From: Lepidostoma basale
Taxonomy: Eukaryota > Arthropoda > Insecta > Trichoptera > Lepidostomatidae
Assembly (NCBI GenBank): GCA_022606425.2
Contig: JAHDVF020000172.1
Coordinates: 806,001 to 870,000, forward strand
Reading direction: 5' to 3'
Length of the DNA: 64,000 nucleotides
Shown in pieces: positions 3,475 to 62,320 of the stretch (positions within the stretch are counted from its first letter, which is position 1; every line of letters starts with the position of its first letter). A program made the translations under genes and the position numbers. The notes under the pieces were generated by a model that saw only the letters and a list, made by a program, of their open reading frames with translations, was not told the origin of the DNA and ran no database searches.

Positions 3475-3673
3475 AATAATTAAATAAAACGATGTTTTTT
3501 AACTACTTCCACTTTTGTCTTTATTTAGACAGCGACCGGTTTCGCCAGGCTCGCTGGCACGACAGACTGGCATTGACCAGTCTGTCGATGCCAGCGAGCC
3601 TGGCGAAACCGGTCGCTGTCTAAATAAAGATAAAAGTGGAAGTAGTTAAAAAACATCGTTTTATTTAATTATT
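3475..3673. repeat. Family D foldback element
   Basis: Arms of about 93 bp (3475-3568 and 3581-3673) are nearly perfect reverse complements and contain CAGCGACCGGTTTCGCC and its complement. The right arm continues into the tandem repeat starting at 3579. A single left-type arm occurs at 23125-23215, and an internal piece at 40561-40635, so D is an interspersed family. Confidence 0.85.
3578..3618 (+). ncRNA. Hammerhead-like motif, family D unit 1
   Basis: In order: CAGU (stem I), CUGUCGA (core with A6 replaced by U), extra U, stem II GCCAG over CUGGC, GAAAC, CG, GUC, then GCUG, which pairs with CAGU if a G-U pair is allowed. Hammerhead layout, but the A6 change would be expected to weaken or abolish cleavage. 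Confidence 0.45.
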
Positions 3674-4020
3674 ATTTAAAATGAACTTCCATCGAGAGAT
3701 TTCAGTAAAATCATTTGATTTATTTTTTCATAAATAGTGTGTTTTATTTTTATATTTCTATTCGTAAACAAAATAAACAGTTTGTTTTTGAATGCATACA
3801 GTCTGTCGATGCCAGCGAGTCTGGCGAAACCGGTCGCTGTCTAAATAAAGACAAAAGTGGAAGTAGTTAAAAAACATCGTTTTATTTAATTATTATTTAA
3901 AATGAGCTTCCATTGAGAGATTTCAGTAAAATCATTTGATTTATTTTTTCATAAATAGTGTGTTTTATTTTTATATTTCTATTCGTAAACAAAATAAACA
4001 GTTTGTTTTTGAATGCATAC
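3579..4020 (+). repeat. Family D 221-bp tandem dimer
   Basis: Two direct copies of a 221-bp unit, 3579-3799 and 3800-4020, differ at only a few positions. Each unit starts with the hammerhead-like motif and ends gaatgcatac. A head-to-tail dimer with one motif per unit resembles the tandem terminal arrangement known in Penelope-like elements and retrozymes. Confidence 0.9.
3798..3840 (+). ncRNA. Hammerhead-like motif, family D unit 2
   Basis: Stem I is 5 bp here: ACAGU at 3798-3802 with GCUGU at 3836-3840, including one G-U. The 5' side comes from the end of unit 1, so the tandem junction itself completes the fold. The stem II hairpin, GAAAC and GUC are intact; A6 is U. Confidence 0.5.
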
Positions 4021-4140
4021 AAATACTTGTAGACAAATACTGGATTTTACCCATTGCAGGTTAATCAATTTTTAAGGATTAAAATAAAATGCAGTATTTG
4101 TCTACAAGTATTTGTATACATTCAAAAACAAATTGTATAA
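4012..4140. repeat. Family F terminal palindrome
   Basis: gcatacaaatacttgtagac near 4014 is followed about 85 bases later by its near-exact reverse complement (gtctacaagtatttgtat, near 4100). The same terminal sequence occurs at 7436-7465 and, diverged, at 39243, always at the edge of the family F repeat. Confidence 0.7.
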
Positions 4141-4179
4141 AAACTGGTCCAAGTTAGAAGCATAAAAATTGGAGATTGG

Positions 4180-4545
4180 ATCTCCAGGCGTGGTCTAGGA
4201 ATGTATGATAACTGCGTAGCCTTTCACATTGCATTAATAAAGATTTTTTGCTTAATGCTTACATATAATCTTAATAGATGTCGTTAGTGTAGATTGACCT
4301 AAAAAATGTGAAGTGTTTCTCAACATAGTAGCATATACTCGTATGGTATATATCTTTCAAAAATTTGTCAGACGTGGTGGTTGTAGGAAGGGTGGAATAG
4401 AGAATGTTGTTAACATAAAGCGATCACTTAACCCAACCAATGACAGGTCGTACTTCCTGTAAACGCCTCGGCCACCATATTCTGTTCCCAGAAAACAATT
4501 TACATCTTCGTCTCTATTGAGATACAATTAATCTTTAAAAAATAA
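4180..4545 (+). repeat. Family F interspersed repeat, copy 1
   Basis: Shared with 7185-7470 (reverse), 39240-39570 and 46735-47040. Conserved blocks: tagtgtagattga, aatttgtcagacgtggtgg, cctgtaaacgcctcg, and tattgagatacaattaatc at the end. No reading frame or recognised tRNA-like head; class unknown. Confidence 0.75.
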
Positions 4546-4559
4546 ACAGTGTTTTAATG

Positions 4560-4626
4560 GGAGGGTCAAATTGACCCTTGAATAGTAACCGTGTAACTTT
4601 TATTTTGGGTAGTAACCTAGTGTTAA
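4560..4626 (-). mobile_element. piggyBac-like terminus
   Basis: Read on the minus strand it starts TTAACACTAGGTTACTACCC and runs to TTCAAGGGTCAATTTGACCC. This parallels the end at 704 (TTAACCCTCGGTAACTAC, then GGGTCACCGTGACCC). Only one end is visible. Confidence 0.45.
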
Positions 4627-4894
4627 AGAAGAAAATTGTCGTGTTTATGAAAATTCAAGAGTGATTTAGTCCAAGGAATAACTTCTGGCTAACTTTACTC
4701 ACTGCTGTATACCGCATTATTTCCATATGCCGCAGTTTATCATTAACACTTGTATACTATGGGACTTATTCTACCGCTAGATTAGGTAGTAAAATTTTGG
4801 GCTTCTCTATGAATGTGGAGGGTGGAGGGTGAGTTATAACCAAGAACTGGAAGGTCTTTACTACGAGCCAAACATTGTGAAATTTATACAAATA

Positions 4895-5228
4895 CATTGC
4901 AGCATCAAGCGCCAAATTATATAAAAAAAATTACCATTAAATACAGAATCTTATATTAACACTGAAGAAGGACTGTTGGAGGAAGTGTTGTGTATACAAA
5001 GCATATAAAAAAGAAAAAGAGAAATTAACCATCATAACAACACAAAGTATGACGTATATAGAAGAAATTCTGAATGCAAGTGTAGCATCAAACGCGAAAT
5101 TATATTAAAAAAATTCACCATTAAATACAGAATCGTAGTAAATAGAATGTAAATACGACCAGTAAATAGAATCGTATCTCAACACTGAAGGAGGACTGTT
5201 TGTCCGAAACAGTCCTTGTTTAATATAA
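4895..5228 (+). repeat. Diverged higher-order repeat before the minisatellite
   Basis: Two related blocks share gcatcaa-cg-aaattatat, accattaaatacagaatc and aacactgaag. They alternate with the gtgttgtatatacaaag segment used in the array that follows. A 10-bp hairpin, AGGACTGTTT over AAACAGTCCT, lies at 5188-5217. Confidence 0.7.
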
Positions 5229-5684
5229 GTGTTGTATATACAAAGTATATAAAAAAGAAAAAGAGAAATATACCATCATAACAACACAAAGTATGGCGTA
5301 TATAGAAGAAATACATCGTAGATTGTTGGGACACCTCCAGCGTACACATGGAAGAAGACCAATTCGGTCTTCTTCCATAGGTGTTGTATATACAAAGTAT
5401 ATAAAAAAAAAAAAGAGAAATAAACCATCATAACAACATAAAGTATGGCGTATATAAAAGAAATACATCGTAGATTGTTGGGACACCTCCAGCGAACCTA
5501 TGGAAGAAGACCAATTCGGTCTTTTTCCGTAGGTGTTGTATATACAAAGTATATAAAAAAGAAAAAAAGAAATAAACCATCATAACAACACAAAGTATGG
5601 CGTATATAGAAGAAATGCATCGTAGATTGTTGGGACACCTCCAGCGTACCTATGGAGGAAGACCGAATTCCATGGAAGATTTTC
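5229..5684 (+). repeat. 152-bp minisatellite, three units
   Basis: gtgttgtatatacaaagtat starts at 5229, 5381 and 5533, an exact 152-bp period. Each unit carries atcgtagattgttgggacac, which translates to a retrotransposon-like LLGHLQR segment. The first two units end in an inverted repeat (ggaagaagacc over ggtcttcttcc in the first). The array seems to have grown from an RTE-like coding piece. Confidence 0.9.
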
Positions 5685-5870
5685 AATACAAGACCAGAAG
5701 AAAAACAAAGTGTGGAAAGACCAAAACTGAGATGAATGGATGGTGCGGAGGGGGACCACAGGGCAATTGGTGTTTCAAACTGTAGAATGCGGTCGATGGA
5801 CCGGGGAAAGCGGCAAATAATTTTGGAGGAGACTAGGGCTCATGGTGGGTTATAGCACCATTGTTGATTG
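5600..5870 (+). mobile_element. RTE-like 3' coding remnant after the minisatellite
   Basis: Plus-strand frames give HRRLLGHLQRTYGGRP, then after frameshifts a segment resembling the usual retrotransposon end with QIILEETRAHGGL. Broken; 5' side merged with the minisatellite. Confidence 0.5.
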
Positions 5871-6557
5871 ATTCTATCGTTAGATTTATATCAAAATATC
5901 AAGCATTATACCACTTAATTATGTATGGAAACTCAGTCATTTTATAGTTTCAAAAGCGGTCCCATTTTGAATAGCTAAACTATATTAATTAATTATTCTA
6001 TTGAATATAATGGCATTCAAAGGGTACACATTAAGTATCTGAATAATGTATTATTATCTTTCACCCTTTCTATGCTCTTAATAAATGCTAGCATACGTCA
6101 TCTTAATGGAGGAACAGCTGTCCCAGAACTAAAAGGGGCATTAGAGCCTTTTCTTCTCTTGTGTGTTCTAATGCACAACGCTCTCTTACCCTATATAAGA
6201 GATATGAGTACATTATGTAATACGTACTCCTTATTTAATAAGTTCACATGTGAGTTTATTATAGAACCCAAGACGTTATGTATTTCTATTTTCAACCCAA
6301 AAAGACTTGAATTTTAATGGAAAATAATTTATAATTATAACATTTGAATTTACAATTAATATATATGAAAAATTATGTGAACACTGTTACAAAGCAAAAT
6401 AATATATTGTTAAATTTTGAATCCGCAATGCAAAGTAATGGTAAATTTTGAAGAAAACGTATGTTTTATAGAATTTTAATTTAGTTTTAAATAACAACAT
6501 GTTCCGCTTAGATGAATTTTTTTTTACTCGTATACTTATTTATGTATATTTGTTGTA
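5870..6557. other. AT-rich DNA, nothing recognised
   Basis: No repeat family or coding signal seen. An 81-codon open stretch near 6072 has no family motif. Confidence 0.5.
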
Positions 6558-6680
6558 TGCGACAAAACATGCCATTTCTATAAAATAGAATAAAACTTCT
6601 AGAAAACAGAGGTTCTCATTTATTATATAATATATGAATTATTACGGAGTTTTACACCCAGTGTTAAAGAAACAATAAAG
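6558..6680 (+). repeat. Family E right arm
   Basis: Carries the family landmarks in order: gcgacaaaacatgccatttc, taaaacttctagaaaacag, acggagttttacac, gaaacaataaa. No inverted left arm is seen. Confidence 0.7.
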
Positions 6681-6778
6681 AAAAACATATTTCGTAATGA
6701 GTGTCGATTTATGAAACAAACGTTATGTCCAAATGTTGTTGAGAAAATATATGGATTCATTTAAGTGGGTTTAGTGAA

Positions 6779-6812
6779 AGGTCCCGGGTTCGATTCCCAG
6801 CGACGGCGCATT
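6779..6812 (+). mobile_element. tRNA-derived SINE fragment, B box only
   Basis: aggtcccgggttcgattccc matches the B-box half of the SINE at 26858. It directly abuts a family E arm, so a later insertion or deletion removed the rest. Confidence 0.6.
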
Positions 6813-6814
6813 TG

Positions 6815-6885
6815 AACAGGCGTTTTATTCGTGTTAATTATTTAACAAGGAGTTGTACATCATTGTTCGAGAAACAATAAATAAG
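6815..6885 (+). repeat. Family E terminal fragment
   Basis: ggcgttttattcgtgttaat through cattgttcgagaaacaataa matches the outer part of an E right arm. Confidence 0.65.
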
Positions 6886-7033
6886 TTTTACTACTTATAA
6901 CAATGCAGTTTTACAATAACCTGTCCAGTAGTGACTTTTTTGAACTCATTAAAATAATAAGAATTCTATGCCTAATCATAAAATATTAAAGGACGATACA
7001 TGTTACACTTTTACAATAAAAAATATCAATCAA

Positions 7034-7162: not shown

Positions 7163-7184
7163 ACAATATTAATCGATTTAGAGG

Positions 7185-7470: not shown

Positions 7471-7474
7471 ATGC

Positions 7475-10448: not shown

Positions 10449-10677
10449 TACACAACAGGTTGTTTGGACCCAATTACTGTATACAATTTTAATTTTTTAG
10501 CTATTATATTGATTCTCGTGACATGTGATAGGTAGCCAATCTATCACCATTTTATTGTCACGTGAATTCTACACCAGACCAATGACGGTGTGACAATCAC
10601 ACTGCCATCGCCGGGAATCGAACCCAGGACCTTCGGTATGGAAGTCAGAGCTCGTAACCACTCTGCCACGAAGGTCG
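10449..10677 (-). mobile_element. tRNA-derived SINE, full length
   Basis: On the minus strand: gaccttcgtggcagagtggt (A-box-like TGGCAGAGTGG), then GGTTCGATTCCC (B box), then a tRNA-unrelated body with gcagtgtgattgtcacac, gaattcacgtgacaataaaa and caatataatagc, ending gtatacagtaattggg. These two internal promoter boxes make RNA polymerase III transcription the expected mode. About 230 bp. Confidence 0.85.
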
Positions 10678-16180: not shown

Positions 16181-17265
16181 AAGATACCAAAATAAGGTAC
16201 TTAATGAATTTAGATTATTTATTTACGTACGTCTGAAAGTAAATTGATTTATTGTTCATTAAGTTGGCTAAATTCAGAAGATTGTCTATTTGCTACTTAA
16301 TCGAGTGCATATCATATATGAGGCTTTGAATAAAATTCTTACTCAATATATAATATATAATATGTCTCGCTTATGAACAATCTACAACATATTATAATAA
16401 CAATGTGTTATAATAATTATTTATTATAACTTAATAATGCATGGAATAATGTAAATCTGAAATTGATTATTTTGGAAAATGAATTGAATGATATACGGGT
16501 AGTAAAACGAAAAATAAAATGCCATTGTCTGAGCGGTAAAAACGTAACGATATTAGGTATTTCGTTCAATGACAAAATTGATGATTTTGTGCATGTTGAC
16601 GAAGACTTGTAGACTTATGGGCTTCCTGCAGAAAGTGATATTATGGAAACTATACTCAATAAAGATCTCGACAATAAATTATGATGATGTGGCTAATGAA
16701 TGTCATATTGAGAAATCCAAATCAGTAACGAGGATCATCCTTAGCATGTCTTTATATGATGGGTATTTATGTAATCATTTAAAATACCTTTTCTCTGATA
16801 TAACGAGTAACGCTTGTAACGACCAATTTCGTTCGGTCTCAATCTGTTTATATTATCGTTCGGTCTCAATCTGTTATTTTACGAGTATATCTAATGTTTT
16901 TATTACTGTACTCCAGTATTATATTTTTACTTCGATAATCTCTCCTATCACATGTCAAAATGTAACAATTCCATTAAAAAATATTTTCTTTTTTTGACAA
17001 AAGGTAACAATTGCATTCAACACCTATTTTTTTAAATATACATAATTTTTTTGTGAATTTATTTACCGATATCTTATAGATAAAGTTATGCTACGTATAT
17101 TTACAATTGAAATAAACAATTTGGAACACAAATTGCATTAAATTTTCGTATGAAGCATTCACTTTGTGGTAATACATTTATTTTTTTATTATTATTTAAA
17201 TTTAAAATAAAATGGGAATAAAAACACTGCACTTTGTTTTTCACCACTATGCGGTTATTTTAATT
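16181..17265. other. AT-rich DNA without assignable feature
   Basis: A 142-codon open stretch (16569-16997) has no family motif and an AT-driven composition. gttcggtctcaatctgtt is repeated in tandem at 16831 and 16859. Not believed to be a gene. Confidence 0.4.
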
Positions 17266-17303
17266 GCCGACTAGTTTCACTTGTACCCGAGCTTCCTCAG
17301 GGC
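17266..17303 (-). ncRNA. Hammerhead-like motif, family I
   Basis: Minus strand: GCC (stem I), CUGAGGA (complete CUGANGA core), extra A, stem II GCUCG over CAAGU (one C-A mismatch, one G-U), GAAAC, UA, GUC, GGC pairing with GCC. The only copy of this family seen here; no inverted partner identified. Confidence 0.5.
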
Positions 17304-17527
17304 TTCGTAATAACTTTTTACGATACCCTATAACAAATAACATATTTATAAATAATCAGAAGGATGTAAAAATCTTATTTTTGCTTCCATGTAAAATTCG
17401 TAAAAAAAGCAGTTGGGACCTTTTGCCAAATAGGTACCGATATAAGCTTGAAGAAATTATACGATTTCCTCAAAATAAGTTATGAGATTTAAACCATTTC
17501 TTGAGGGGTCGTGTATCTTTATAAGGA

Positions 17528-17587: not shown

Positions 17588-18109
17588 CTGGTTAACCTAA
17601 CCTATATTTCCGCCTGGCTGACCATTTCAACTGTCCGGTGGTTTGATAGTGCCAGATCAAGTGAAGTGGATAACTCGGATAACACGTCATAGGTGACGTC
17701 ACTGCCTGTTTCCTCTGCTCGTTAATATGCCCTAAATTTATAGCGTCCACTCACACGTATAGGGAAATGGTGTGATATTGATAAATTGCATTAATATTAG
17801 TTGCTACGAAAATAAATACAGTATCAAATTGAGAGAATAATCCACTTATTGAACTTATTATCTTATTATTTAATTATTTATTGAAGTTATTAAATTTGAA
17901 TTTATTTTTCTACATTACAATTTTTTTATATATTTTTTTATAATATCATCATGTATTAATATTATTTATTAGTTCTTACTGTTTAAAAATAATTGTTAAT
18001 ACCTACTTATAACAAATAGCAGAGGTTAATTTTTAAATTTGAATTATTGTATCGAATTTGAAATGCGTTTTTTATTAGTCTTTGTTTGTTTAGTTTTTAT
18101 AATATTTTT

Positions 18110-18148
18110 ACACCTGAAGATGGAGGTATCCTCCGAAACATGTCGTTT
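18110..18148 (+). ncRNA. Hammerhead-like motif, family B
   Basis: CUGAAGA (18114-18120, complete CUGANGA), extra U, perfect stem II GGAGG-UAU-CCUCC (18122-18134), GAAAC (18135-18139), AU, GUC (18142-18144). Stem I is weak: G-C, U-A, a mismatch, U-A. Confidence 0.6.
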
Positions 18149-18210
18149 TTTTTAAATATATTTTTTTTTAAATAGTGGATTAAACAAAGTTTTTCAATTT
18201 CCTTGTATTT
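18110..18210 (+). repeat. Family B element, right arm
   Basis: Shares tcctccgaaacatgt and aatagtggattaaacaaagt with the foldback at 26312-26499. A left arm is not seen here. It abuts the SINE2 piece at 18214. Confidence 0.8.
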
Positions 18211-23124: not shown

Positions 23125-23215
23125 TAATTAAATAAAACAAGTTTTTTAACTATTTACTTCCACTTTTGTCTTTATTTCGACGGCGACCGGTTTCGCCAGG
23201 CTCGTGGCATCGACA
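23125..23215 (-). repeat. Family D arm with hammerhead-like core
   Basis: attaaataaaacaagttttt to gcgaccggtttcgccaggct matches the left arm at 3475. Minus-strand core reads AUGUCGA, stem II, GAAAC, CG, GUC; C3 is changed. The inverted partner is absent. Confidence 0.7.
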
Positions 23216-23254
23216 TACTGGTCTGTTCCACTATTATTATTATTATTACTGTTA

Positions 23255-26311: not shown

Positions 26312-26499
26312 TTAATATACTTAGGAAATTGAAAATAACTTTGTTCAATCCACTATTTATTAAAAAACTTGACATGTTTCGGAGAATGCCTTCATCTTCC
26401 AAGATGGAGGTATCCTCCGAAACATGTGGTGTTTTTTTAAATATTTTTTAAATAAATAGTGGATTAAACAAAGTTATTTTAAATTTCCTAAGTATATTA
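26312..26499. repeat. Family B foldback, complete
   Basis: A near-perfect palindrome of about 90-bp arms with virtually no loop: tatacttaggaaattg left, aatttcctaagtatatta right. The right core reads CAAGA, U, GGAGG-UAU-CCUCC, GAAAC, AU, GUG. The left core on the other strand has GGAAGA and keeps GAAAC and GUC. Both cores are hammerhead-like but altered at C3/U4 or the cleavage base. Confidence 0.85.
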
Positions 26500-28255: not shown

Positions 28256-28344
28256 GTTTTGGCCGAAACACTGTGATACTTAAACATTATAAACTGTTAA
28301 ATTAAAACACTTTGTTTTATGTATCACAATTGTATTTTTATTTT

Positions 28345-28390
28345 ACGCGACAGTTGTTTCGTCAACCTATGTTGACATCATCAGGTGTTA
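28345..28390 (-). ncRNA. Hammerhead-like motif, family A, minus
   Basis: Complete core on the minus strand: CUGAUGA, extra U, stem II GUCAAC-AUAG-GUUGAC, GAAAC, AACU, GUC. Stem I is poor: GCG after the cleavage site lies opposite CAC, giving two pairs and a C-A mismatch. Confidence 0.55.
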
Positions 28391-28404
28391 CAATAATATT
28401 ATTG

Positions 28405-31146: not shown

Positions 31147-31372
31147 TGTGTACAACGGGTCGATTGAACCAAATTACTGTATACAATTTATTTTAGCTAT
31201 TATATTGATTCTTATGCCATGTAAGAGGTAGCCAAACTATCGCCATTTTATTGTCACGAGAATTCTATACCAGACCAAAGACAGTGTGACAATCACACTG
31301 CCATCGCCGGGAATCGAACCTGGGACCTTCAGTATGGAAGTCAAAGCTCTTACCACTCTGCCACGAAGGTCG
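31147..31372 (-). mobile_element. tRNA-derived SINE, full length
   Basis: Minus-strand head gaccttcgtggcagagtggt at 31372, B box GGTTCGATTCCC, terminal gtatacagtaatttggttc. Same orientation as 10449. Confidence 0.85.
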
Positions 31373-31984: not shown

Positions 31985-32200
31985 TAAAAAAATTATGACA
32001 GCTGTTTCATCAACCTATGTTGACATCATCAGGTGTTACAATCTGTGATATTGTCAACATAGGTTGCGAAACAGCTGTCGCGTAAAATAAAAGTAAAAAT
32101 ACAATTGTGATACATAAAACAAAGTTTTTTTTAATTGAATAGTTTACAATATTAAAGTATCATAGTGTTTCGGCCAAAACAATGAACTATTTAATGATTA
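31985..32200. repeat. Family A element nested in the large foldback
   Basis: Left arm ttatgacagctgtttcatca, right arm aggttgcgaaacagctgtcg, right terminus agtgtttcggccaaaacaat. The right core has lost CUGAUGA. Confidence 0.8.
31995..32040 (-). ncRNA. Hammerhead-like motif, family A
   Basis: Minus strand: CUGAUGA, extra U, stem II GUCAAC-AUAG-GUUGAU, GAAAC, AGCU, GUC. Core complete; the closing pair of stem II is G-U; stem I not evident. Confidence 0.55.
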
Positions 32201-34449: not shown

Positions 34450-34760
34450 AGAAACAGTTCTTCTATTTAACTGTTTATGGTATTCATAAACTCTGTTTAT
34501 GGTATCATATGTTGACATCATCAGGTGTTATTATATTAAAATTATTTTTCATGATTTTTAATTTTGAAAAATAATTTTAATTGTTGAAAAAATATTGTAA
34601 CACCTAATGATGTCGACATAGGTAGACGAAACAGTGGTCGTGAAAAAAAATGTGATACCATAAACAGCGTTATACATAATATTTAAATAATTTTGAAGTT
34701 TCATAGTGTTTCGGCCCAAGCAATAGACTTTTAAACGAAATTTTTTTTTAACATTCATAA
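34450..34760. repeat. Family A foldback with longer loop
   Basis: Left catatgttgacatcatcagg; right acctaatgatgtcgacatag with gacgaaacagtggtcgtg. The right core has CUAAUGA (G5 to A), keeps GAAAC and GUC, and GUG after GUC pairs fully with CAC upstream, a stem I of 3 bp. Right terminus tagtgtttcggcccaagcaa. Confidence 0.75.
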
Positions 34761-35483: not shown

Positions 35484-36440
35484 CAACAACAACAACAAAC
35501 CATCACGCCGTTTTCCCGCAGGGGTAGGCAGAGAGAATGGACCGCCACACTACTCTATCCTGGCAAACCTCTCTAGCTTCCTCCACATTCATACAACGAG
35601 TCATACACGCACGTCGATTCCTCCGACTTCTAACATGACCAACCTTTAAAATTTGATTAATTTGGTCATGCCATGATTTCCTCGGTCTGCCTCGACTTCG
35701 TACCCCATTTACATCATTAACGTATACTTTCTTAACCATTCTTTCTCCATCCATGCGTTCCATATGTCCGAACCAACGCAGCGATCCTTTCATAATTTTG
35801 TTCATTATACTTTCTTCCGCTCTACATTCCTTTCTTATATCAGCATTTGAGATTCTGTCGTATATCGTTCTACCACACATACGTCTTAGGGACCTCATCT
35901 CTACCGCATTTATTCTACTCTCATCCTTCTTCTGCCAGTTCCATGTTTCGCTTCCATACATTAGGGTTGGGACCAGAACTCCATTGTGAACGGCCGTTTT
36001 CGCTTTCATTGATAAATTCTTGTTTCCAATAACTATTTTAAAAGCTCCATTCACTTTGTTACCCGCACCAACCCTTCTTTCGACGTCACTATCCGTTCGG
36101 GCATCTGCTGTGAACATACTACCTAAATACACAAATTCTTTCACCTGTTCCAAGTTCTCTTCGTTCACACTTATATTACAAACTGTCATTTGCTCTTCCC
36201 TTTCGAAAACCATCACCTTTGACTTTCCGACATTCATCATTAAATCATTTGACTTGCATACCTCATACGAGTACATTCTCGACACCAAGACTTGTAATTC
36301 GTCCGCACTATCCGCAAGGAGAACGGCATCGTCCGCGTAAAGCAGACAGTTTACAGACAGATCAATCATCTTAGCACCAGCATTTATACCTTTAAGTTCT
36401 TTCATACACTTGTCCATATACAGATTGAACAACCATTTTA
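35484..36440 (-). mobile_element. RTE1, CAA-tail subfamily, best copy
   Basis: Tail (CAA)n at 35484-35499, then catcacgccgttttcccgca. 5'-truncated at about 36440, just upstream of WLFNLYMDK. Near-identical to 44060-44605 over the shared part, so the subfamily moved recently. It stops directly against a family H2 foldback. Confidence 0.9.
35503..36432 (-). CDS. Partial reverse transcriptase, 309 codons, RTE-like
   Basis: Uninterrupted frame covering the last part of the polymerase palm and the C-terminus. Catalytic box LLYADDAVLLAD has YADD at residues 32-35. Then come MMNVGKSKVMVFE, EFVYLGSMFTAD, VERRVGAGNKVNGAF, VPTLMYGSETWNWQKKDESR, LRWFGHMERM, GRPRKSWHDQINQI and the end VWRSILSAYPCGKTA. 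The fingers, most of the palm and the endonuclease are missing, so it cannot act alone. The ATG is internal to the original protein. Clade placement near RTE rests on the arrangement of C-terminal blocks. Confidence 0.85.
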   Translation of the reverse strand: MFNLYMDKCMKELKGINAGAKMIDLSVNCLLYADDAVLLADSADELQVLVSRMYSYEVCKSNDLMMNVGKSKVMVFEREEQMTVCNISVNEENLEQVKEFVYLGSMFTADARTDSDVERRVGAGNKVNGAFKIVIGNKNLSMKAKTAVHNGVLVPTLMYGSETWNWQKKDESRINAVEMRSLRRMCGRTIYDRISNADIRKECRAEESIMNKIMKGSLRWFGHMERMDGERMVKKVYVNDVNGVRSRGRPRKSWHDQINQILKVGHVRSRRNRRACMTRCMNVEEAREVCQDRVVWRSILSAYPCGKTA

Positions 36441-36600
36441 TTTCATCGAACCAACCGGTTTCGCTCCCCCCGAAGCTTCGGCAGGGTTACAATAGCAAAC
36501 TGAACGTCAGTTCGAAAGTCACTTAAAACGTCACTTTGTTTCTTCACCTTAACGAAGGGCAAATGGCAGTGAAACCGGTTGATTCGATATAATAAATGAA
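36441..36600. repeat. Family H2 foldback
   Basis: Arms tcgaaccaaccggtttcgc and gaaaccggttgattcga face each other around about 100 bases. The plus arm core (36551-36580) reads UUAACGA, A, weak stem II, GAAAC, CG, GUU and is degenerate. Confidence 0.7.
36449..36488 (-). ncRNA. Hammerhead-like motif, family H2
   Basis: Minus strand: AACC, CUGCCGA (A6 to C), extra A, stem II GCUUC-GGGG-GGAGC (one U-G), GAAAC, CG, GUU, then GGUU pairing with AACC as a 4-bp stem I. All parts are present except A6. Confidence 0.5.
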
Positions 36601-37429: not shown

Positions 37430-37625
37430 TTTTCAATAACGTGGTCAGTATTAGCAGATATTAAAAATATATTTTTTTAATATTCGTCACAATTGACCAC
37501 ATTCATGAACATTTTGTTTAAATATTTATTTTGTATAAACAAAAAACTAACAACACTGATGAAGGGCTTCTGTGTCTAAAACATGTTTGTATTTTAAGTT
37601 TTAATAAAGGTAGTGTTGTTTACAA
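37430..37625 (+). repeat. Family C element, right half
   Basis: Interior gacaattgaccac-type sequence and tttaaatatttattttgtat are shared with 60890-61050. It ends with the hammerhead-like motif and taataaaggtagtgttgttt. No left motif remains. Confidence 0.7.
37553..37590 (+). ncRNA. Hammerhead-like motif, family C, altered
   Basis: ACA, CUGAUGA (37556-37562), extra A, stem II GGGC over GUCU, then AAAAC (G12 changed to A), AU, GUU, UGU pairing with ACA. Loss of G12 should inactivate it. Confidence 0.45.
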
Positions 37626-37649: not shown

Positions 37650-37890
37650 AATTTAAAAAACCTGTTATAATATCACAATTTCTTTTTATTCACTAAGAAT
37701 GTCGCGACAGCTGTTTCAGAATTTATTGTAACACCTGATGATGCCAACATCAGTTGGCGAAACAGCTGTCGCGACACTCTCAGTGAATAGAAAGAAAGTG
37801 TGATATTATACATTGTTTTAAATTTTAACAGTAATAATGTTGAAGAATCACAGTGTTTCGGCCAAAACAATGGACTATTTGAAATGAACA
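37650..37890. repeat. Family A foldback, left core deleted
   Basis: Left arm cactaagaatgtcgcgacag then tgtttcag breaks off. Right arm complete to tgaatagaaagaaagtgtga. Right terminus cagtgtttcggccaaaacaa and tggactattt. Confidence 0.8.
37731..37776 (+). ncRNA. Hammerhead-like motif, family A, cleanest plus copy
   Basis: CUGAUGA (37735-37741), extra U, perfect 6-bp stem II GCCAAC-AUCA-GUUGGC (37743-37758), GAAAC (37759-37763), AGCU, GUC (37768-37770). Stem I again only GCG opposite CAC with the middle pair mismatched. Confidence 0.6.
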
Positions 37891-43330: not shown

Positions 43331-44055
43331 CTTATTAAAGAAAAATGACCAATACAAGTATCCATAATCTTTTCATTTACCATCTTAACTGCTTAGCAGT
43401 TGATAGTTGATGCTATTGACAGGACTTATATTATAGATATAAATGATCCCCCCCCCCCTAGATATAATATATAGTTTCTCCATTTGTGACTGCTCCCGAA
43501 AATTCAAATAACATATTTCAGTGGCGAAGTCAAAAAAGTTACCCTTTAGACCAACTAATACTGGGCGCTAGTAGAAATGCGCTGGACATAATGCAGGTGA
43601 CACTCGTTTTTTTATCCTTTGGAATTACACTTTTGTCAAAATCGCGGAGGATACTGAAATGGATGCCTGAATAAATCCGCCATTACAGGTGCAATCAAAG
43701 GCACGAAGGTGGGCAATTACTGTCTCATTATTATATAGAATTATGCAATTAAAACCCCTGGCAAAAAGCACGAGCTGTTAACTACAGCGCACGGAAAAAC
43801 TTCAGACATATTTTCGCAAATTCAATCCCGTAGGCTATACGGCTGTCGTCCAATTATCGAGACGAATGCTTGTGCTAATGGACATTAATTTGTCCCCGTT
43901 TGTCCCTGCTTTCAGAGGCCTGTAATCGCGTTCTAGGAACGCTCGGGCGGCGAGGCACAGAGCCGGGCGGCGAACCACCACAGCATCAGCTGTGCGTACT
44001 AGGGCTTGGGTTCGATGGGTTCCATCGATCTTAAAACAGTGCATCTTTCAAAACA
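43330..44055. other. Single-copy island, GC-rich in part
   Basis: C run at 43448-43458. 43680-44030 is the most GC-rich part of the window (cgctcgggcggcgaggcaca) and is not repeated. An open minus-strand frame of 69 codons has no motif. Confidence 0.35.
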
Positions 44056-44059
44056 AAAC

Positions 44060-44605
44060 AAACAAACAAACAAACCATCGCACCGTTTCACCGCAGGGGT
44101 AGGCAGAGAGAATGGACCGCCACACTACTCTATCCTGGCACACCTCTCTAGTTTCCTCCACATTCATACAACGAGTCATACACGCACGTCGATTCCTCCG
44201 ACTTCTAACATGACCAACCTTTAAAATTTGATTAATTTGGTCATGCCATGTTTTCCTCGGTCTGCCTCGACTTCGTACCCCATTTACATCATTAACGTAT
44301 ACTTTCTTATCCATTCTTTCTCCATCCATGCGTTCCATATGTCCGAACCAACGCAGCGATCCTTTCATAATTTTGTTCATTATACCTTCTTCCGCTCTAC
44401 ATTCCTTTCTTATATCAGCATTTGAGATTCTGTCGTATATCGTTCTACCACACATACGTCTTAGGGACCTCATTTCTACCGCATTTATTCTACTCTCATC
44501 CTTCTTCTGCCAGTTCCATGCTTCGCTTCCATACATTAGGGTTGGGACCAGAACTCCATTGTGAACGGCCGTTTTCGCTTTCATTGATTCATTTGGCATC
44601 AAAGT
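44060..44605 (-). mobile_element. RTE1, CAA-tail subfamily, young copy
   Basis: An open minus-strand frame spans it: NESMKAKTAVHNGVLVPTLM, YGSEAWNWQKKDESRINAVE, GSLRWFGHMERMDGERMDKK, ending WRSILSAYPCGETV. Tail aaacaaacaaacaaac at 44056. Nearly identical to 35500-36010; truncated near 44605. Confidence 0.9.
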
Positions 44606-44734
44606 TTTTAAAAACTGTATCTTAAATATCTTCATAATTTTTTTTTTATGTTTCAATCGTAGGGATTGATTTGCAGCAAGTCTAAGATCTTTTGCTGGTT
44701 CTGGGGAAGCACTTGGGACTTTAATGCAGTAGTT

Positions 44735-44875: not shown

Positions 44876-45106
44876 CTTGTATACAACTGGTCGTTTGAAC
44901 CTAATTACTGTATACAATGTATTTTTTAGCTATTATATTGATTCTTATGACATGTGATATATAGTCAATCTATCGCCATTTTATTGTCACAACAATTCTA
45001 CATCAGAGCAAAGACAGTGTGACAATCACACTGCCATCGCCGGGAATCGAACCCGGAACCTTCGGAATGGAAATCATAGCTCTTACCACTCTGCCACGAA
45101 GGTCGA
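44876..45106 (-). mobile_element. tRNA-derived SINE, full length
   Basis: Minus-strand head gaccttcgtggcagagtggt at 45106, intact B box GGTTCGATTCCC, body acaataaaatggcgatagat, end gtatacagtaattag. A best-preserved reference copy for the family. Confidence 0.85.
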
Positions 45107-47655: not shown

Positions 47656-47771
47656 TTAATTTATCTCGACATGTTTCGGAGGCTTTACAATTTCATCATC
47701 GGGAGACAATATAAACTATATCGTTCTTCCAATGATATAGTTTATATCGTTCTTCCGATGATGGAGGTGTA
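47656..47771 (-). repeat. Family B-like foldback with hammerhead-like core
   Basis: Minus strand: UUGUCUC, CCGAUGA (U4 to C), extra U, a mispaired stem II ending CCUCC, GAAAC, AU, GUC, GAGAUAA. The two flanks give a 7-bp stem I (one G-U). The facing copy starts at 47755 (ccgatgatggagg) and is interrupted by an RTE-like insertion. Confidence 0.6.
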
Positions 47772-53239: not shown

Positions 53240-53560
53240 TCTTATAATTTTTAAAACTGTTAAATTAAAATAACTTTGTTTTTATATCACAATTGTATAT
53301 TATTCTACGCGACAGCTGTTTCATCAACCTATGTTGACATCATCAGGTATTACAATAATATATCAAATGTCAAATTTTCGTGATTTTTCGAATCTTTATG
53401 TGTATGTTCCCATGTCAATTTGAATAATTTTTTTGATATTATTTTAAAGTTCTTGCTGAAATTGAGTTAAGTTATTTTAATTCAACAGTTTTAAAATGTT
53501 ACGATATCATAGTGTTTCGGCCAAAACAATGCACTATATAATTGTTTACCGTGCTGTTAA
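53240..53560. repeat. Family A, long form with internal segment
   Basis: Left arm ttaaaactgttaaattaaaa to catcatcaggtattacaata. The internal segment ttcgtgatttttcgaatctt is shared with 62170-62215. Right terminus agtgtttcggccaaaacaat. The long form may be closer to a parent element than the short foldbacks. Confidence 0.8.
53308..53350 (-). ncRNA. Hammerhead-like motif, family A long form
   Basis: Minus strand: CUGAUGA, extra U, stem II GUCAAC-AUAG-GUUGAU, GAAAC, AGCU, GUC. Core complete. Stem I weak as in other A copies. Confidence 0.55.
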
Positions 53561-57470: not shown

Positions 57471-57505
57471 ATACAACACTCACTTTATTAAAAATATAAA
57501 AATTA

Positions 57506-57551
57506 AATACCAAACATGTTTCAGACTAATCAGCCCTTCATCAGTGATATT
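57506..57551 (-). ncRNA. Hammerhead-like ribozyme, best candidate (family C)
   Basis: Minus strand in order: AAUAUCA; CUGAUGA (complete core); extra A; stem II GGGCU-GAUU-AGUCU (5 pairs, two G-U); GAAAC; AU; GUU; UGGUAUU. Stem I is 7 bp (AAUAUCA with UGGUAUU, one G-U). Stem III is only A-U and C-G around two bases, too small to close as a monomer hairpin; known minimal hammerheads of this kind are thought to work as dimers. The H position is U, which is allowed. Confidence 0.7.
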
Positions 57552-57553
57552 AT

Positions 57554-58198
57554 TCTTCTTCTTCTTCTTCGATGGCCCTACAGCCCATATCGAGCCTTAG
57601 CATCCAGTATTCTTCGCCTCCAACTCCTCCTGTCCTCCGCTTCGACCCTCCAATCTGACACTCTTAACAATCTTGCTCCATCTCTCCCAACTTCATCCTC
57701 CCATCGCAGCCTTGGTCGTCCAATTGGTCTTCTACCACCTGGGTGCCACTCCAGCAATCTTTTTGGGGTTCGCGATGACGGCATCCTCTGCACGTGACCG
57801 GCCCATCTCAGTCTATTCAGTCTGACCTGTGTGGAGAGACTGGGAGCTTTGTAAATATTGTACAGCTCGTCATTATGCCGCACTCTCCAGCCTTCACCGT
57901 CATTCACAGGCCCCAGAATTCTGCGCAGCACCCTTCTCTCAAAAGTATCCAGTCGCTCTGCAGATTTCGCTGTCATTGTCCACGCCTCACACCAATAGGT
58001 CACTACTGTTCGGATGATTGTTTTATACAGAGTGATTTTGGTTTTCCAGTGTACGTTTCTTGATTTGAGCGCTGGTAGTAGAGAGAAGAATGTTTTGTTA
58101 CCAATTGTGATTCTTCTTTCGATTTCCTTGTGATCTTCGTTTTCTTTTGTTATAGACGAACCCAGGTAAGTGAAGTCCTCCACCATCTTAAAGTTGTA
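57554..58198 (-). mobile_element. RTE-like family O inserted in family C element
   Basis: Flanked by the exact 14-bp duplication ATCAGTGATATTAT (57540-57553 and 58199-58212). Tail TTCTTCTTCTTCTTC at the left is the element's (GAA)n end. 5'-truncated. The minus-strand frame is open throughout. Confidence 0.9.
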
Positions 58199-58249
58199 AT
58201 CAGTGATATTATGTAAATATAAATATTTAAAAATAATCATTTTTAACAT
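57578..58249 (-). pseudogene. RTE-like family O partial ORF, 223 codons
   Basis: Residues 26-34 FTYLGSSIT, 41-50 KEIERRITIG, LYKTIIRTVVTYWCEAWTMT (residues 74-93), RRVLRRILGPV (105-115), LRWAGHVQRM (147-156), GRPRLRWEDEV (177-187) and RSWRRRILDAKARYGL at the end. This is the region after the YADD palm motif. The first 17 codons lie outside the duplication in host-element DNA, so the annotated ATG is accidental. Confidence 0.8.
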
Positions 58250-58304
58250 CTGTCAAAACTGACCGCATTTGTAAAAAAATATATGTTATTTAAAATATTC
58301 ATAT

Positions 58305-58350
58305 AATATCACTGATGAAGGGCTGGTTAGTCCCCAAGATATTTGGTATT
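58305..58350 (+). ncRNA. Hammerhead-like motif, family C partner, inactive
   Basis: AAUAUCA and UGGUAUU (stem I) and CUGAUGA are preserved, but GAAACAUGUU has become CCAAGAUAUU. The fold survives while the GAAA core is lost. Confidence 0.5.
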
Positions 58351-58484
58351 ATTTTTTATTTTTCCAAAGTGATTGTCGTAATAAAAAAAAACATTAGAAT
58401 GTTAGTATTTTCAGATAAATATTTTACCGATTTCCGATAAAAAATTATAAAACAATATTTAACTTTTAAAAGACGCTTACACCT

Positions 58485-58700: not shown

Positions 58701-59105
58701 ATACAATAAATCTAACCTCGTCAGTTATTTAAAAATAATAATTAAATTCATACAAATCTGAATCAACCAAAACGAGTTTTACTTTAGTTCATGTGAAGTA
58801 AATAATGTATATATTTTTTATAATTTCTGTCAGAGTTCCAATAATTAAGTTGATTATATTATATTGGATATTTATGATTTATATTTATTTTAATAAAACA
58901 CCTTTATTTTCACTTTATTATTGTTTCATTATTTTTTTAGTTAAAAATATTTAAAGTATTTTTTTTTTCGTTTTTACTGGTTTATTTTTATTTATTAAAT
59001 GTATATATTTGGTTATTTTGTTGATGGAATTTAAATACATTCATATAATCAATCGATTAGAGAAAATATGTTAACAGATATGTGGGAATAACAATGTTTA
59101 AGTTA
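58700..59105. other. Very AT-rich DNA, nothing recognised
   Basis: No repeat or coding feature seen. Confidence 0.45.
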
Positions 59106-59109
59106 ATAA

Positions 59110-59195
59110 TTAAAAATTTCTAGAAGGTTTATTAAATTTTATGGGAGTTTCGCCTTTTTAATTAATTATCAAATGTTTTTTTGATAATGCCTTAC
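59110..59195. repeat. Family E, short
   Basis: atttctagaaggtttattaa, ttatgggagtttcgcc and tttttttgataatgccttac. Confidence 0.5.
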
Positions 59196-59689
59196 CAATT
59201 ATTATAACTTATTTGTAACTAGATAAATAATTCATGTAAGTTTAGTTCCCACCTATTATGTAGTATATTAACGCAAAATTAACGCATTGTCATCACCGAC
59301 CCATTTAATATTGATTTCTTGCTCTCAGTCCCCAGTCAAGTCTTTTCACTTTTAAGTCCTCGTCTAGTGTCCTTTTTCACGGTAAATTATTATCCCTGTA
59401 GTAACGCATTTTTACCTGAAATACCTTAAAGCTTATGAGGCTTGTTAGAAAAACATACAAGTCTTTTGGCCCTTTACCTAAGAGTCAACACATTTGTCAC
59501 GTCTGTTCGTCACAACCTTTTTAAGTGAGTATGATGTCAATATCTAAAACACTTCAATAAGTTTTATGTTATATAAATTATTTGTATTGCATTTTATTAA
59601 TAATATTGACTTTCAAGCAATTCAATAGATCATCGAAATTTTAGTTTTTGAAAAATATAAAATACTTAAGCTATGGAATTCCATAATTA

Positions 59690-59885
59690 TATATGAACTA
59701 AAATATTATTTATTGTTTCTTGAACGAATGAAAACTTATATTTTATTGAATTTTTATTATATTTAATGTGAATGACATGTTTTACCTGTCTAAGGCATTA
59801 TCAAATATTTTATTTGATAATGATAATCACAAAAACAGACGTTTTAATTAGTATTGATTACTTATTGATGTAACATTTTTTTTTA
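59690..59885. repeat. Family E foldback
   Basis: Left ttattgtttcttgaacgaat to acctgtctaaggcattatca; right tttgataatgataatcacaa, aaacagacgttttaattagt. The right hammerhead-like half is deleted. Confidence 0.65.
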
Positions 59886-59899
59886 ATGAAAGAAATAAA

Positions 59900-59995
59900 A
59901 CGAGTAGTTGATAGAAGTGTAAGACGAATGTATTGACCCCAAAATAATAGTGAATTGCTGTATTAGAACTGTGAGAATGATTTCTGCGCGGCTGA
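59900..59995 (+). mobile_element. RTE1 internal scrap
   Basis: gtgtaagacgaatgtattga and gatttctgcgcggctgatga resemble the RR-C and C-A-D positions of RTE1. Low confidence. Confidence 0.35.
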
Positions 59996-59999
59996 TGAT

Positions 60000-60385
60000 G
60001 GACATGATTTTTTATAATCGGGGTAACCTGACAACAAAATATGTGAAATAAAATCTGATTGCGTAGCTTTGCAATTATTTATTTTCGAGTGTTTAATAAG
60101 CGTGAAGATTTCATTAAGCTAAGAGAGTGCCAAAATTTCAAATATCAAAGAAATTATTTAATAATAATGAAAACATTATTATACGAAGTGAGGAATTCGG
60201 ACTTTGAAATAAGATACTTTGTTCCATATAGGAAGCAGCCGCGTATATTTACTGTGTCATTTGGCTGCGAGAGAAAATTTAACGTTTTAAAACACTATTT
60301 AGGATAAGAAATACGTGTGTATAATGGTTTATGTAATTGAGCAATGTTTATGCGTTCTTGGGATATTTATATATATTATGTTTTT
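60000..60385. other. Unassigned DNA
   Basis: An 82-codon frame from 60059 has no motif. Apparently single copy. Confidence 0.35.
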
Positions 60386-60570
60386 CTTATTCTTCTTCTT
60401 CTTCCGATGTCATGTCAGGTCTTTCCGACGATGACTATCACCTGAGAGTAGGCGTCTATGTTCCTGGCAGCTCGAAACAGCTCATCGACGCTCCTCAAGC
60501 CTGTCAAGTCCCTTGGGTTTTGGAGTCAAGAGATTCGCCTCCTGTAATCACAACGTATGGTAAATATGTA
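60386..60570 (-). mobile_element. RTE-like family H, 3' end
   Basis: Tail cttcttcttcttccgatgtc, then minus-strand LQNPRDLTGLRSVDELFRAA and RNIDAYSQVIVIVGKT with a stop. The coding end is intact over about 45 codons. Confidence 0.7.
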
Positions 60571-60799
60571 GGTAAGTAAAATAATTAATGATTATTGGAT
60601 TGTGTCTTATTTTCCCGGGTGGTTTCACGATATAAAGGCTACTAAGTTTCTACTTTATACTGAAACTATGCATGATTTTGTAAAATATAACGCACCACCA
60701 AGTTTTTTTTCCATTTAGGTATCATTGAAAATTTCTTAAAATTATTAAATCTATTTCACAGCAAATAAACACAGCAGTGGAAAATAAATATATTTATGA

Positions 60800-61140
60800 T
60801 TAAACAATATATTTTTACTTGTAACAGAACACTTTATTTTTAAATACAAACATGTTTCGGGACACAGAAGCCCTTCTTTAGTGTAGTTAAAATATTTTAA
60901 ATACAAAATAAATATTTTAAAGAATTTTATCAAGAATATGGTCAGTTTTGAAAAATATTAGAAAAATGTTTTTTTTTACGTCAATCTGTCAAAATTGTTT
61001 ACATTAATGATAAAAAATGATTAAATATTTATTTTGTATTTATAACATTATATTTAAACTACACTAATGAAAGATTCGTGTGTTTCGAAACATTTTTGGG
61101 TTAATTTGTAATTTTTAATTATATTTGTATTTAAAAAAAA
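60800..61140. repeat. Family C foldback, complete but diverged
   Basis: Left caaacatgtttcgggacaca and gaagcccttctttagtgtag; interior gaatatggtcagttttgaaa and gtcaatctgtcaaaattgtt; right cactaatgaaagattcgtgt, gtttcgaaacatttttggg. The left core (minus) has CUAAAGA with GAAAC and GUU; the right has CUAAUGA. Both have lost G5. Confidence 0.75.
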
Positions 61141-61144
61141 TGGA

Positions 61145-62150
61145 TTGTATTGCAAAGAGAAAAATATTGTTCAATTATGATTCAGCAAGACAAAGTAATG
61201 GAGAATATAGAAGAACTATTTTTGATTGATATTTCACTCAATTTAACGTGGACATGTTTTGTTGTGATATTTACCAACCGGGTGTATTATTTTTTTTACT
61301 AATTTATGGCCATCAAATACATTTTGTTTCATTTTAAAATTGGCTATAATAATATTAAAACTACATTTTAAAATTTTATGATTTTAGATTACATTAATAG
61401 TTGCATAAATATCGTTTCGGTCTGTAGATATCATTAAAACATCCATATTACGGTACATGCTACCTGTGAATCTTAACCGTTACTCGCATCTACATAGATT
61501 TCACATAATAAAATAATTAATCAAATCATTCAACATTAAAATACCAACCTTATTATGTATCGGTTGTTTCTTTTTCCCAATAGTTCACTCCCGCCCGTAC
61601 AAAGGATGGCGATTCCCAGAATCGCGGTGACCAGACATTCTGTCCGCACAACCACCCGATCTCCGTCATCCTGTCTCCTCTCAACGTGACGGCTAATGAT
61701 GCCCGATAGTACTCACACCCGATGATCCAAGGATGAAATTATAACAATGAGAGGTGTCTAGGACTCAAATTGAACAGAAAACCACTGGATATATGATAAG
61801 TACCTTTTCTTGCATCTATATATCTTATAAACTATTAAATTAAAAATAACTTCATTTATACAATCTAGCAAAAAATAATATTACTACCTTCAACTTTTGT
61901 CACATTTTTTATTAATCTAATCTGCTTCCTTTATTATTATATTGTTTATCGTCTTTAATTTATTGTGTTTCATCGTTTTCGACTCTATATTATGTATAAT
62001 TGTTCCTTTTAATTACTGATTTTATTATTATTGTCATTATTTAATTTAATTTTATTTTACCTTTAATATTTTCTCCTATAAATAGTAACTACACGTTCTT
62101 TCAATTAAAATAATTAGGTACCTACTCCAGCAACAACTTCAAAATTGTAT
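61145..62150. other. AT-rich DNA with a GC-richer island
   Basis: 61570-61790 (tagttcactcccgcccgtac, ccacccgatctccgtcatcc) is unique, with no open frame of note. The remainder is AT-rich. Confidence 0.35.
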
Positions 62151-62320
62151 CAAAGAAATTTTTCAAATTGACATAGGAACAAATACGCATAAAGGTTCGA
62201 AAAATCATGAAAATTTGACATTTACTATATTTTTGTAACACCTGATGATGTCAACATAGGCTGACGAAACAAGTATCACGGTGTTTCGGCCAAAACAATG
62301 GACTATTTAATTAAACATAT
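62150..62320 (+). repeat. Family A long form, right part
   Basis: Internal segment gttcgaaaaatcatgaaaat matches 53375-53395 reversed. The core CUGAUGA at 62243, stem II GUCAAC-AUAG-GCUGAC and GAAAC are present, then the sequence jumps to the terminus cggtgtttcggccaaaacaa without GUC. Confidence 0.75.

What the first reader, a model, noticed from the sequence alone, without database searches (positions are those of the whole stretch)
3475..62320. Seven unrelated-looking repeat families share one hammerhead-like skeleton
Families A, B, C, D, E, H2 and I differ in arms and interiors, yet each places a (C)UGANGA-type block, one A or U, a G-C-led hairpin, GAAAC, 2-4 bases and GU(C/U) in the same order. 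In the intact cores (A and C CUGAUGA, B CUGAAGA, I CUGAGGA) the only variable base is the seventh, the one free in known hammerheads. Shared constraint on an RNA core explains this better than common descent of the DNA. E is the weakest member.
Basis: partly seen in the sequence, partly recalled or inferred. Interest (0 to 1): 0.85.

Follow-up and report, generated by a model that had tools for sequence, protein, structure and literature searches.

The report
Hammerhead ribozymes of Penelope retroelements
The repeats are leftovers of several Penelope-type jumping genes, each carrying its own version of a tiny self-cutting RNA that seems to need two copies to work; the kind is known, but the copies here are very numerous and share one small deviation in the cutting core.

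Summary
Nine window sites have a perfect hammerhead (HHR) core CUGANGA, one extra base, stem II and GAAA; shuffles give 0.07. Genome-wide, two core patterns match 35,979 times against 38 for the patterns reversed. Stems I and II covary between families.

Stem III is mostly a loopless palindrome (81 of 97 sequences) that differs between families, so cleavage should need a dimer. These are the minimal type I HHRs known from Penelope-like elements (PLEs). Elsewhere in this genome families A and B flank GIY-YIG endonuclease frames (A: stop-to-stop 758 aa, RT plus GIY-YIG). Links of family C and of a relative of I are weaker. The repeats are 5'-truncated pLTR copies; close neighbours are mostly head to head.

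Two features are less ordinary. Exactly one base, A or U in 95, separates A9 from stem II in 97 of 97 sequences. Family A, the most intact lineage seen, has U6 in all 24 copies listed. The extra base has a viroid precedent. I file this as a new member of a known kind. Cleavage could not be tested.

The parts
3571..3624 (+). Family A hammerhead, core CUGUCGA (A6U), stem III ACCGGU; first of two direct copies
   Evidence: 47.2 bits; training row of the model
3792..3845 (+). Family A hammerhead, second direct copy (221 bp period)
   Evidence: period 221, 98% matches; 44.9 bits, not a training row
3524..3576 (-). Family A hammerhead in inverted orientation, head to head with the copy at 3571
   Evidence: (spacer 16 nt)
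23175..23227 (-). Degenerate family A hammerhead
18103..18154 (+). Family B hammerhead, CUGAAGA-U-GGAGG, stem III ACAUGU
26361..26438 (.). Family B inverted pair of hammerhead remnants (26361-26405 minus, 26390-26438 plus)
28339..28395 (-). Family C hammerhead, CUGAUGA-U-GUCAAC; lies in an inverted repeat whose other arm reaches 28516
31987..32043 (-). Family C hammerhead, stem III ACAGCUGU
34593..34649 (+). Degenerate family C hammerhead (CUAAUGA)
37724..37780 (+). Family C hammerhead (GCCAAC/GUUGGC stem II) in an inverted repeat
53301..53357 (-). Family C hammerhead with about 170 nt of upstream sequence shared with the copy at 62242
62242..62277 (+). Family C hammerhead core, 3' side lost
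57503..57555 (-). Family D hammerhead, CUGAUGA-A-GGGCU, stem III ACAUGU
37545..37597 (+). Family D-like hammerhead copy
   Evidence: 38.0 bits, not a training row
58301..58353 (+). Family D-like degenerate copy
5174..5225 (+). Family D/K-like hammerhead with core CUGAAGG
60839..60892 (-). Family E hammerhead, core CUAAAGA; inverted partner at 61053-61106 (+)
61053..61106 (+). Family E degenerate hammerhead, inverted partner
   Evidence: 14.1 bits, weak
36443..36495 (-). Family H hammerhead, core CUGCCGA, stem III ACCGGU
17259..17311 (-). Family I hammerhead, CUGAGGA-A-GCUCG, stem III ACUAGU
47658..47713 (-). Probable degenerate hammerhead, stem III ACAUGU
   Evidence: 20.1 bits; the viral control had one match of 20.0 bits

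Best explanation
The families are pLTR-derived fragments of several lineages of Penelope-like retroelements in an insect-like genome. Each carries its own minimal type I hammerhead ribozyme: a short stem I, the CUGANGA/GAAA core with one extra A or U after A9, stem II, and a mostly loopless palindromic stem III that can only pair between two RNA copies. Inferred working: the element RNA is tandem or is brought together as a dimer by the Penelope protein, the two palindromes pair, and each copy cuts after GU(C/U). Reverse transcription starts at a preferred site some 140-170 nt downstream of the core (family C) and usually stops early, so many genomic copies hold little more than the hammerhead and its 3' tail, often as head-to-head pairs. 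Shown here: the sequence skeleton, covariation, palindromes, the extra base, GIY-YIG linkage (firm for A and B, weaker for C and a relative of I), 5' truncation and head-to-head orientation of close pairs. Inferred: catalysis, dimerisation, the reverse transcription start and the role in the element's cycle.
For: Covariation of stems I and II between families and of stem II within family C (92.6% paired; pair 21-34 with CG 21, UA 21, UG 2, GC 1). Genome-wide matches 16,817 vs 17 and 19,162 vs 21 for reversed patterns. Stem III palindromic in 81 of 97 distinct sequences and, for its free dinucleotide, in 91 of the 100 listed of 16,817. Family A: inverted 456-nt arms (99%) with HHRs around a stop-to-stop 758-aa frame with RVT_1 and GIY-YIG; family A HHRs in 17 of 30 GIY-YIG loci, two pairs of which overlap. 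Family B: 219-nt inverted arms around a GIY-YIG frame. Relative of I: HHR about 40 nt after a frame whose GIY-YIG score, 21.5 bits, is under the 22.6 cut-off. Family C: GIY-YIG-like sequence upstream in 3 of 30 loci (tblastn E 8.5e-13, 1.3e-6, 4.2e-5). Upstream homology ends spread from 48 to 491 nt before the end of the 28-mer used to find the copies; 14 of 29 copies end 137-168 nt after the core. Among neighbouring hits within 500 nt in two lists of 100, 24 pairs point outward, 1 inward, 3 are direct. Published parallel: the Anolis Penelope protein cuts and extends both strands, starts reverse transcription 111-118 nt into the ORF with the HHR cut 26 nt into it, and its HHR cleaves only with protein (PMC11167929, main-text section).
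Against: The searches asked for the core, so they do not themselves show that the core is conserved. Within family C the core-proximal stem I is weak (55.6% of cells paired; the 2.2:1.2 pair fails in 39 of 45), and over its whole structure 78.8% of cells are paired against 76.8% in shuffles. RNAalifold on the same alignment predicts another pairing in which core CUG pairs with CAG of stem III. Of nine monomers folded, six show stem II and four show stems I and II together. Family A, the most intact element seen, has U at position 6; a natural A6C hammerhead was measured below 0.1 per minute (passage of PMC3088659). One family (GAAACGUCGGUC) has no palindrome in 5 of 5 sequences. No ORF link was shown for families D/K, E and H, or for I itself. 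No PLE protein lies in the window (six query frames, E<=0.01). Half of the family C copies end elsewhere than the preferred 3' end. Six of 20 head-to-head pairs have asymmetric and 14 symmetric junctions, so the origin of the pairs is not settled.
Confidence: 0.9

Rival explanations
1. The hammerhead-like motif is a structure of the Penelope pLTR that is no longer catalytic: for example a binding or packaging signal for the Penelope protein near the reverse transcription start, with the catalytic residues carried along by descent.
For: [quoted passage not shown] A review calls the in vivo role of these minimal HHRs a mystery (passage of PMC7761336).
Against: Full cores far exceed chance in families whose stems have changed completely, though the family comparison itself was made on sequences chosen for a near-intact core. 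The Anolis HHR does cleave with protein.
Confidence: 0.2
2. The repeats are animal retrozymes: non-autonomous tandem repeats of about 170-400 bp with type I hammerheads that spread through circular RNAs.
For: Family A at 3578-4021 is a direct tandem with a 221 bp period, a retrozyme-like size; retrozyme-like repeats are reported from insects among others (passage of PMC7229834).
Against: Of 28 close pairs 3 are direct and 24 head to head. The family A repeat is the pLTR of an ORF-bearing Penelope element. Invertebrate retrozyme HHRs are described as having a stable helix III, minimal ones as the PLE kind (passages of PMC7761336).
Confidence: 0.06
3. The motifs are chance or are one DNA repeat family that has drifted.
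For: Sites with one core mismatch and 0 or 2 extra bases are at chance level in the window.
Against: Perfect cores with one extra base 9 vs 0.067, genome matches several hundred-fold over reversed patterns, and 54 cells with changes on both sides that keep the pair against 20.5 in shuffles (the number of such pairs, 9, does not exceed shuffles).
Confidence: 0.02

Closest known systems
Minimal type I hammerhead ribozymes of Penelope-like elements (Cervera and De la Pena 2014; Lunse, Weinberg and Breaker 2017; both known to me by recall and citation only, neither is held)
   Same: pLTR location, vanishing stem III, proposed dimer requirement, thousands of copies in animal genomes (reviewed in PMC6155905 and PMC7761336: passages; PMC7229834: passages and part 1 of 3 of its Results)
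   Different: An extra A/U after A9 in nearly all sequences counted here, and A6U in one lineage. I could not check whether the 2014 and 2017 papers already describe the extra base; from memory of other animal genomes I expect it is common in PLE hammerheads.
Poseidon PAc element of Anolis carolinensis (PMC11167929, main-text section read)
   Same: RT plus GIY-YIG in one ORF; hammerhead a short way upstream of where inserted copies end at their 3' side
   Different: In PAc the ORF starts inside the HHR and copies are in tandem. In L039 two family A copies are inverted around the ORF, with the downstream HHR 389 nt after its end. Cutting and extension of both strands, seen for PAc, was not testable here.
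Penelope families of the rotifer Adineta vaga (PMC3846280, passages)
   Same: Inverted, most often head-to-head pLTR arrangements with palindromes at the junction, and 5' truncation
   Different: No hammerhead is mentioned in that text (0 occurrences).
Plus-strand hammerhead of chrysanthemum chlorotic mottle viroid (PMC3705267, passage)
   Same: One extra residue between A9 and G10.1; natural A, U faster in trans, C and G with major detrimental effects
   Different: A viroid ribozyme; not tied to retroelements or to a palindromic stem III in the passage seen.

Membership tests
Hammerhead ribozyme, type I | Core C3 U4 G5 A6 N7 G8 A9 ... G12 A13 A14, U16.1 H17 | tested here: met
   9 perfect-core sites in the window (one, 31465, doubtful) and 35,979 pattern matches genome-wide. 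Not met at A6 by family A (CUGUCGA) or 36484 (CUGCCGA).
Hammerhead ribozyme, type I | No base between A9 and stem II (10.1:11.1) | tested here: not met
   One extra base in 97 of 97 sequences, no ties, when 0, 1 or 2 were allowed. In the listing 79 of the 80 with a stem of 3 bp or more choose one base and one chooses none. A known natural exception exists in CChMVd.
Hammerhead ribozyme, type I | Stems I and II supported by covariation, open at stem I | tested here: met
   between families. Stem I is weak inside family C.
Hammerhead ribozyme, type I | Stem III | tested here: met
   Only as a self-complementary loopless palindrome, in 81 of 97 sequences and 15 of 15 A3 rows; it needs a second strand.
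Hammerhead ribozyme, type I | Loop I-loop II tertiary contact | not tested
   -
Hammerhead ribozyme, type I | Self-cleavage after H17 | not testable with these tools
   -
Hammerhead ribozyme, type I | Match to an Rfam hammerhead model | tested here: not met
   No hammerhead match in the window at gathering or at E<=10, nor in 6 single loci at E<=10.
Penelope-like element | One ORF with RT and C-terminal GIY-YIG | tested here: met
   L039 frame: RVT_1 51.5 bits, GIY-YIG 23.6 bits against a cut-off of 22.6; named homologs include insect reverse transcriptases. Both domains in one frame were shown for family A only; B shows GIY-YIG (30.5 bits), the relative of I scores 21.5, C has tblastn matches only.
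Penelope-like element | Direct or inverted pLTRs around the ORF | tested here: met
   L039 456-nt arms, L040 219-nt arms.
Penelope-like element | Fixed 3' end with optional tail | tested here: inconclusive
   14 of 29 family C copies end 137-168 nt after the core, 14 end 21-115 nt after it, one is unplaced.
Penelope-like element | Target-site duplication | not tested
   -
Animal retrozyme | Tandem repeats of about 170-400 bp | tested here: inconclusive
   Met by the 221 bp pair of family A; direct neighbours are only 3 of 28 close pairs.
Animal retrozyme | Circular RNA | not testable with these tools
   -

The most novel reading that the evidence does not exclude
Penelope hammerheads of this genome form a structural variant of their own. 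A fixed A/U bulge between A9 and stem II, together with a loopless palindromic stem III, is a design for a ribozyme that is silent as a monomer and is switched on by RNA dimerisation or by the Penelope protein near the reverse transcription start. The most intact lineage has begun to lose catalysis (A6U) without losing mobility.
Probability: 0.3. Interest if true: 0.62.

Novelty: new member of a known kind. Interest (0 to 1): 0.38.

Why it matters
Penelope hammerheads are very numerous ribozyme-like sequences in animal genomes, yet their role is unknown. A single genome with at least eight motif families, tens of thousands of intact matches, changing palindromes and one lineage with an altered core is a natural mutational series: it lets one ask which parts of the ribozyme mobility really needs. 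In the stretches tested Rfam release 15 gives no hammerhead match, so routine annotation would report the head-to-head pairs, if anything, as weak microRNA-like hairpins.

Tried and rejected
Rfam scans gave no hammerhead; sub-threshold microRNA matches reflect the palindromic foldbacks and were set aside. The viral collection was scanned for A/U and for C/G at the extra position: 58 and 42 stretches, of which 6 and 2 have stem II of 4 bp or more; seven of those eight have no continuous stem I and the eighth has 2 bp. I take these as chance, so the viral collection gave no relatives. Retrozyme and chance readings were considered and rejected (see rivals). I first thought the head-to-head pairs might be clean evidence for priming on both DNA strands. 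The junctions are symmetric in 14 of 20 and asymmetric in 6, and PMC3846280 argues for self-priming, so I leave the origin open. Notebook entries that the calls do not bear out: says 8 perfect-core sites (one search has 9); one search says C or G 'abolish' viroid cleavage (the passage says major detrimental effects); one search says about 15 of 29 3' ends (14).


Full report
What is there. The window is G000:C750:806001-870000 of a 768.8 Mb genome in 1572 contigs without a name. Among the 120 listed of 1343 protein matches to its Penelope protein, those that bear a species name are insects: Phthorimaea first, then Euphydryas, Schistocerca and Diabrotica. The host is therefore probably an insect. 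Scattered over the window are repeats that contain, in this order: a short 5' strand of stem I, CUGANGA, one A or U, a hairpin of about 3-6 bp, GAAAC, two or four bases, GU(C/U), and the 3' strand of stem I.

Chance. With a perfect core and exactly one base before the hairpin the window has nine sites; 30 dinucleotide-preserving shuffles average 0.067. With one core mismatch and no or two extra bases the window is at chance level, so weak members should not be counted one by one. Across the genome, CTGANGAN{8,22}GAAACNNGTC matches 16,817 times and CTGANGAN{8,22}GAAACNNNNGTC 19,162 times; the same patterns read backwards match 17 and 21 times. A few sites may satisfy both patterns. The patterns fix the core, so their hits say nothing about core conservation beyond the excess over the control; the stems and the extra base were left free.

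Structure. I aligned 15 copies from about eight families that share the two-base stem III (A3). With the hammerhead pairing, 88.7% of cells are paired against 59.1% when partners are shuffled (0 of 500 reach it), the covariation score is 0.763 against 0.217, and sliding the partners by 1-3 columns gives 29-47%. The number of pairs with a two-sided change (9) does not exceed shuffles; the number of cells (54 against 20.5) does. Since relatives inflate such counts, I also took one consensus per cluster. Stem I pairs with its own partner in 25 of 32 positions for the 8 clusters with more than one member (14.6 when partners are exchanged, p=0.00025). For all 17 clusters, some of which are stray copies of the same families, it is 47 of 68 (27.6 expected, 0 of 20,000 shuffles). 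Inside family C, 45 copies (of the 52 sequences, those with the standard spacing) show stem II 92.6% paired with clear compensations, but stem I next to the core only 55.6% and a possible outer part of stem I 60.4%; RNAalifold prefers a different local pairing there. In nine monomers folded alone, stem II appears in six and stems I and II together in four.

Stem III. Of 97 distinct sequences in the fetched loci and the window, 81 have a perfectly palindromic stem III. Of the 100 listed two-base copies, 91 are palindromic (ACAUGU 83, ACUAGU 4, ACCGGU 4). Family C uses ACAGCUGU. Such a stem cannot fold back on itself; it can pair with a second copy. One family with GAAACGUCGGUC is not palindromic (0 of 5) and may close a two-pair hairpin instead.

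The extra base. When 0, 1 or 2 bases between A9 and stem II were allowed, all 97 sequences with at most one core mismatch chose one, without ties; the base is U 74, A 21, C 2. In the listing of 100, 79 choose one base, one (a changed family B copy) chooses none and 20 have no stem of 3 bp; the base after A9 is A 57, U 40, C 2, G 1. A review states that the chrysanthemum chlorotic mottle viroid hammerhead has an extra A at exactly this place, that U there is 3-4-fold faster in trans, and that C or G have major detrimental effects (PMC3705267, passage). The fit with A/U is striking, but the families are few and the genome is AT-rich, so it is a lead.

What carries it. A Pfam GIY-YIG search of the genome gave 62 matches among 150 scored of 541 candidates; 30 loci were cut out. 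Family A hammerheads occur in 17 of these 30 loci (two pairs overlap), in the 24 distinct copies listed always with core CUGUCGA (which allowed one core mismatch and counts one copy from another locus). In L039 a stop-to-stop frame of 758 aa with RVT_1 and GIY-YIG lies between inverted arms of 456 nt, 99% alike, with one outward-pointing hammerhead in each. Family B flanks a GIY-YIG frame in the same way in L040. In L042 a hammerhead like that of family I follows a frame by about 40 nt whose GIY-YIG score is just below the cut-off (21.5 against 22.6). For family C, 30 loci were drawn by an upstream 28-mer, not by the hammerhead: GIY-YIG-like sequence lies upstream in three (L212, L231, L211). 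For D/K, E and H I found no ORF link. No Penelope protein matches in the window itself.

How copies are made. Family C copies share upstream sequence over lengths from 48 to 491 nt before the end of the 28-mer, the usual mark of 5' truncation; L206 and L207 are one duplicated stretch. Fourteen of 29 copies end 137-168 nt after the core, fourteen end 21-115 nt after it, one could not be placed. Of neighbouring hits within 500 nt in two lists of 100, 24 are minus-then-plus, that is pointing outward, 1 is inward and 3 are direct; most listed hits have no intact partner that close. This head-to-head arrangement is already described for rotifer Penelope elements (PMC3846280, passages). In the Anolis element the protein cuts and extends both strands, reverse transcription starts 111-118 nt into the ORF and the hammerhead cut lies 26 nt into it (PMC11167929, main text). 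If these elements do the same, every new copy must begin with the tail and the hammerhead, which would explain why these short pieces are so many without any selection on the copies themselves. Of 31 family C copies so ascertained 14 have the full motif. Whether the pairs come from priming on both strands or from self-priming is open: 14 of 20 junctions are symmetric, 6 are not.

What it does. Most likely the hammerhead acts on the element's own RNA, as a dimer and with help of the Penelope protein; the Anolis hammerhead cleaves only with protein, and its mutants still insert in vitro. Family A, which has the most intact ORF seen here, has U6; a natural A6C hammerhead elsewhere was measured below 0.1 per minute (PMC3088659, passage). 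So catalysis may be optional for mobility. Nothing here tests cleavage.

Verdict. It is the known minimal hammerhead of Penelope-like elements (reviews PMC6155905, PMC7761336, PMC7229834: passages and part of one Results section; the primary papers are not held). What I have not seen described in the texts I could read is the constant extra A/U in these elements. The searches listed no paper that I recognised as being about it, but I opened only some of those papers, and the two primary papers were out of reach and may well show it.

Noticed in passing
window 35503-36432 (-): 309-aa frame with a partial RVT_1 domain (31.4 bits), a reverse transcriptase fragment that begins shortly after the family H hammerhead; a similar-looking frame lies at 44048-44656 (-) without a Pfam match.
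   Followed up: partly
window 57578-58249 (-): 223-aa frame that by eye looks like the C-terminal part of a non-LTR element (recalled, no Pfam match); the family D hammerhead starts about 35 nt after its end.
   Followed up: no
window 45032-45103, 31299-31370, 10603-10675 (-): Three tRNA-like matches, one just over the Rfam gathering score and two below it; possibly tRNA-derived SINEs.
   Followed up: no
L049, L057, L069, L080, L086: A hammerhead family with core CUGAAGA, long stem II and GAAACGUCGGUC, whose stem III is not palindromic but could close a two-pair hairpin with loop GUCG or GUUG; it might work as a monomer.
   Followed up: partly
window 5225-5670: 152-bp tandem repeat, 2.9 copies, that follows a D/K-type hammerhead and shares its downstream sequence but seems to have an inverted repeat in place of the hammerhead (by eye).
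   Followed up: no
L086, L096, L093, L094: The head-to-head hammerhead pairs score as sub-threshold microRNA precursors in Rfam (up to 100.9 bits); such foldbacks could be a source of small RNAs or of false microRNA annotations.
   Followed up: no
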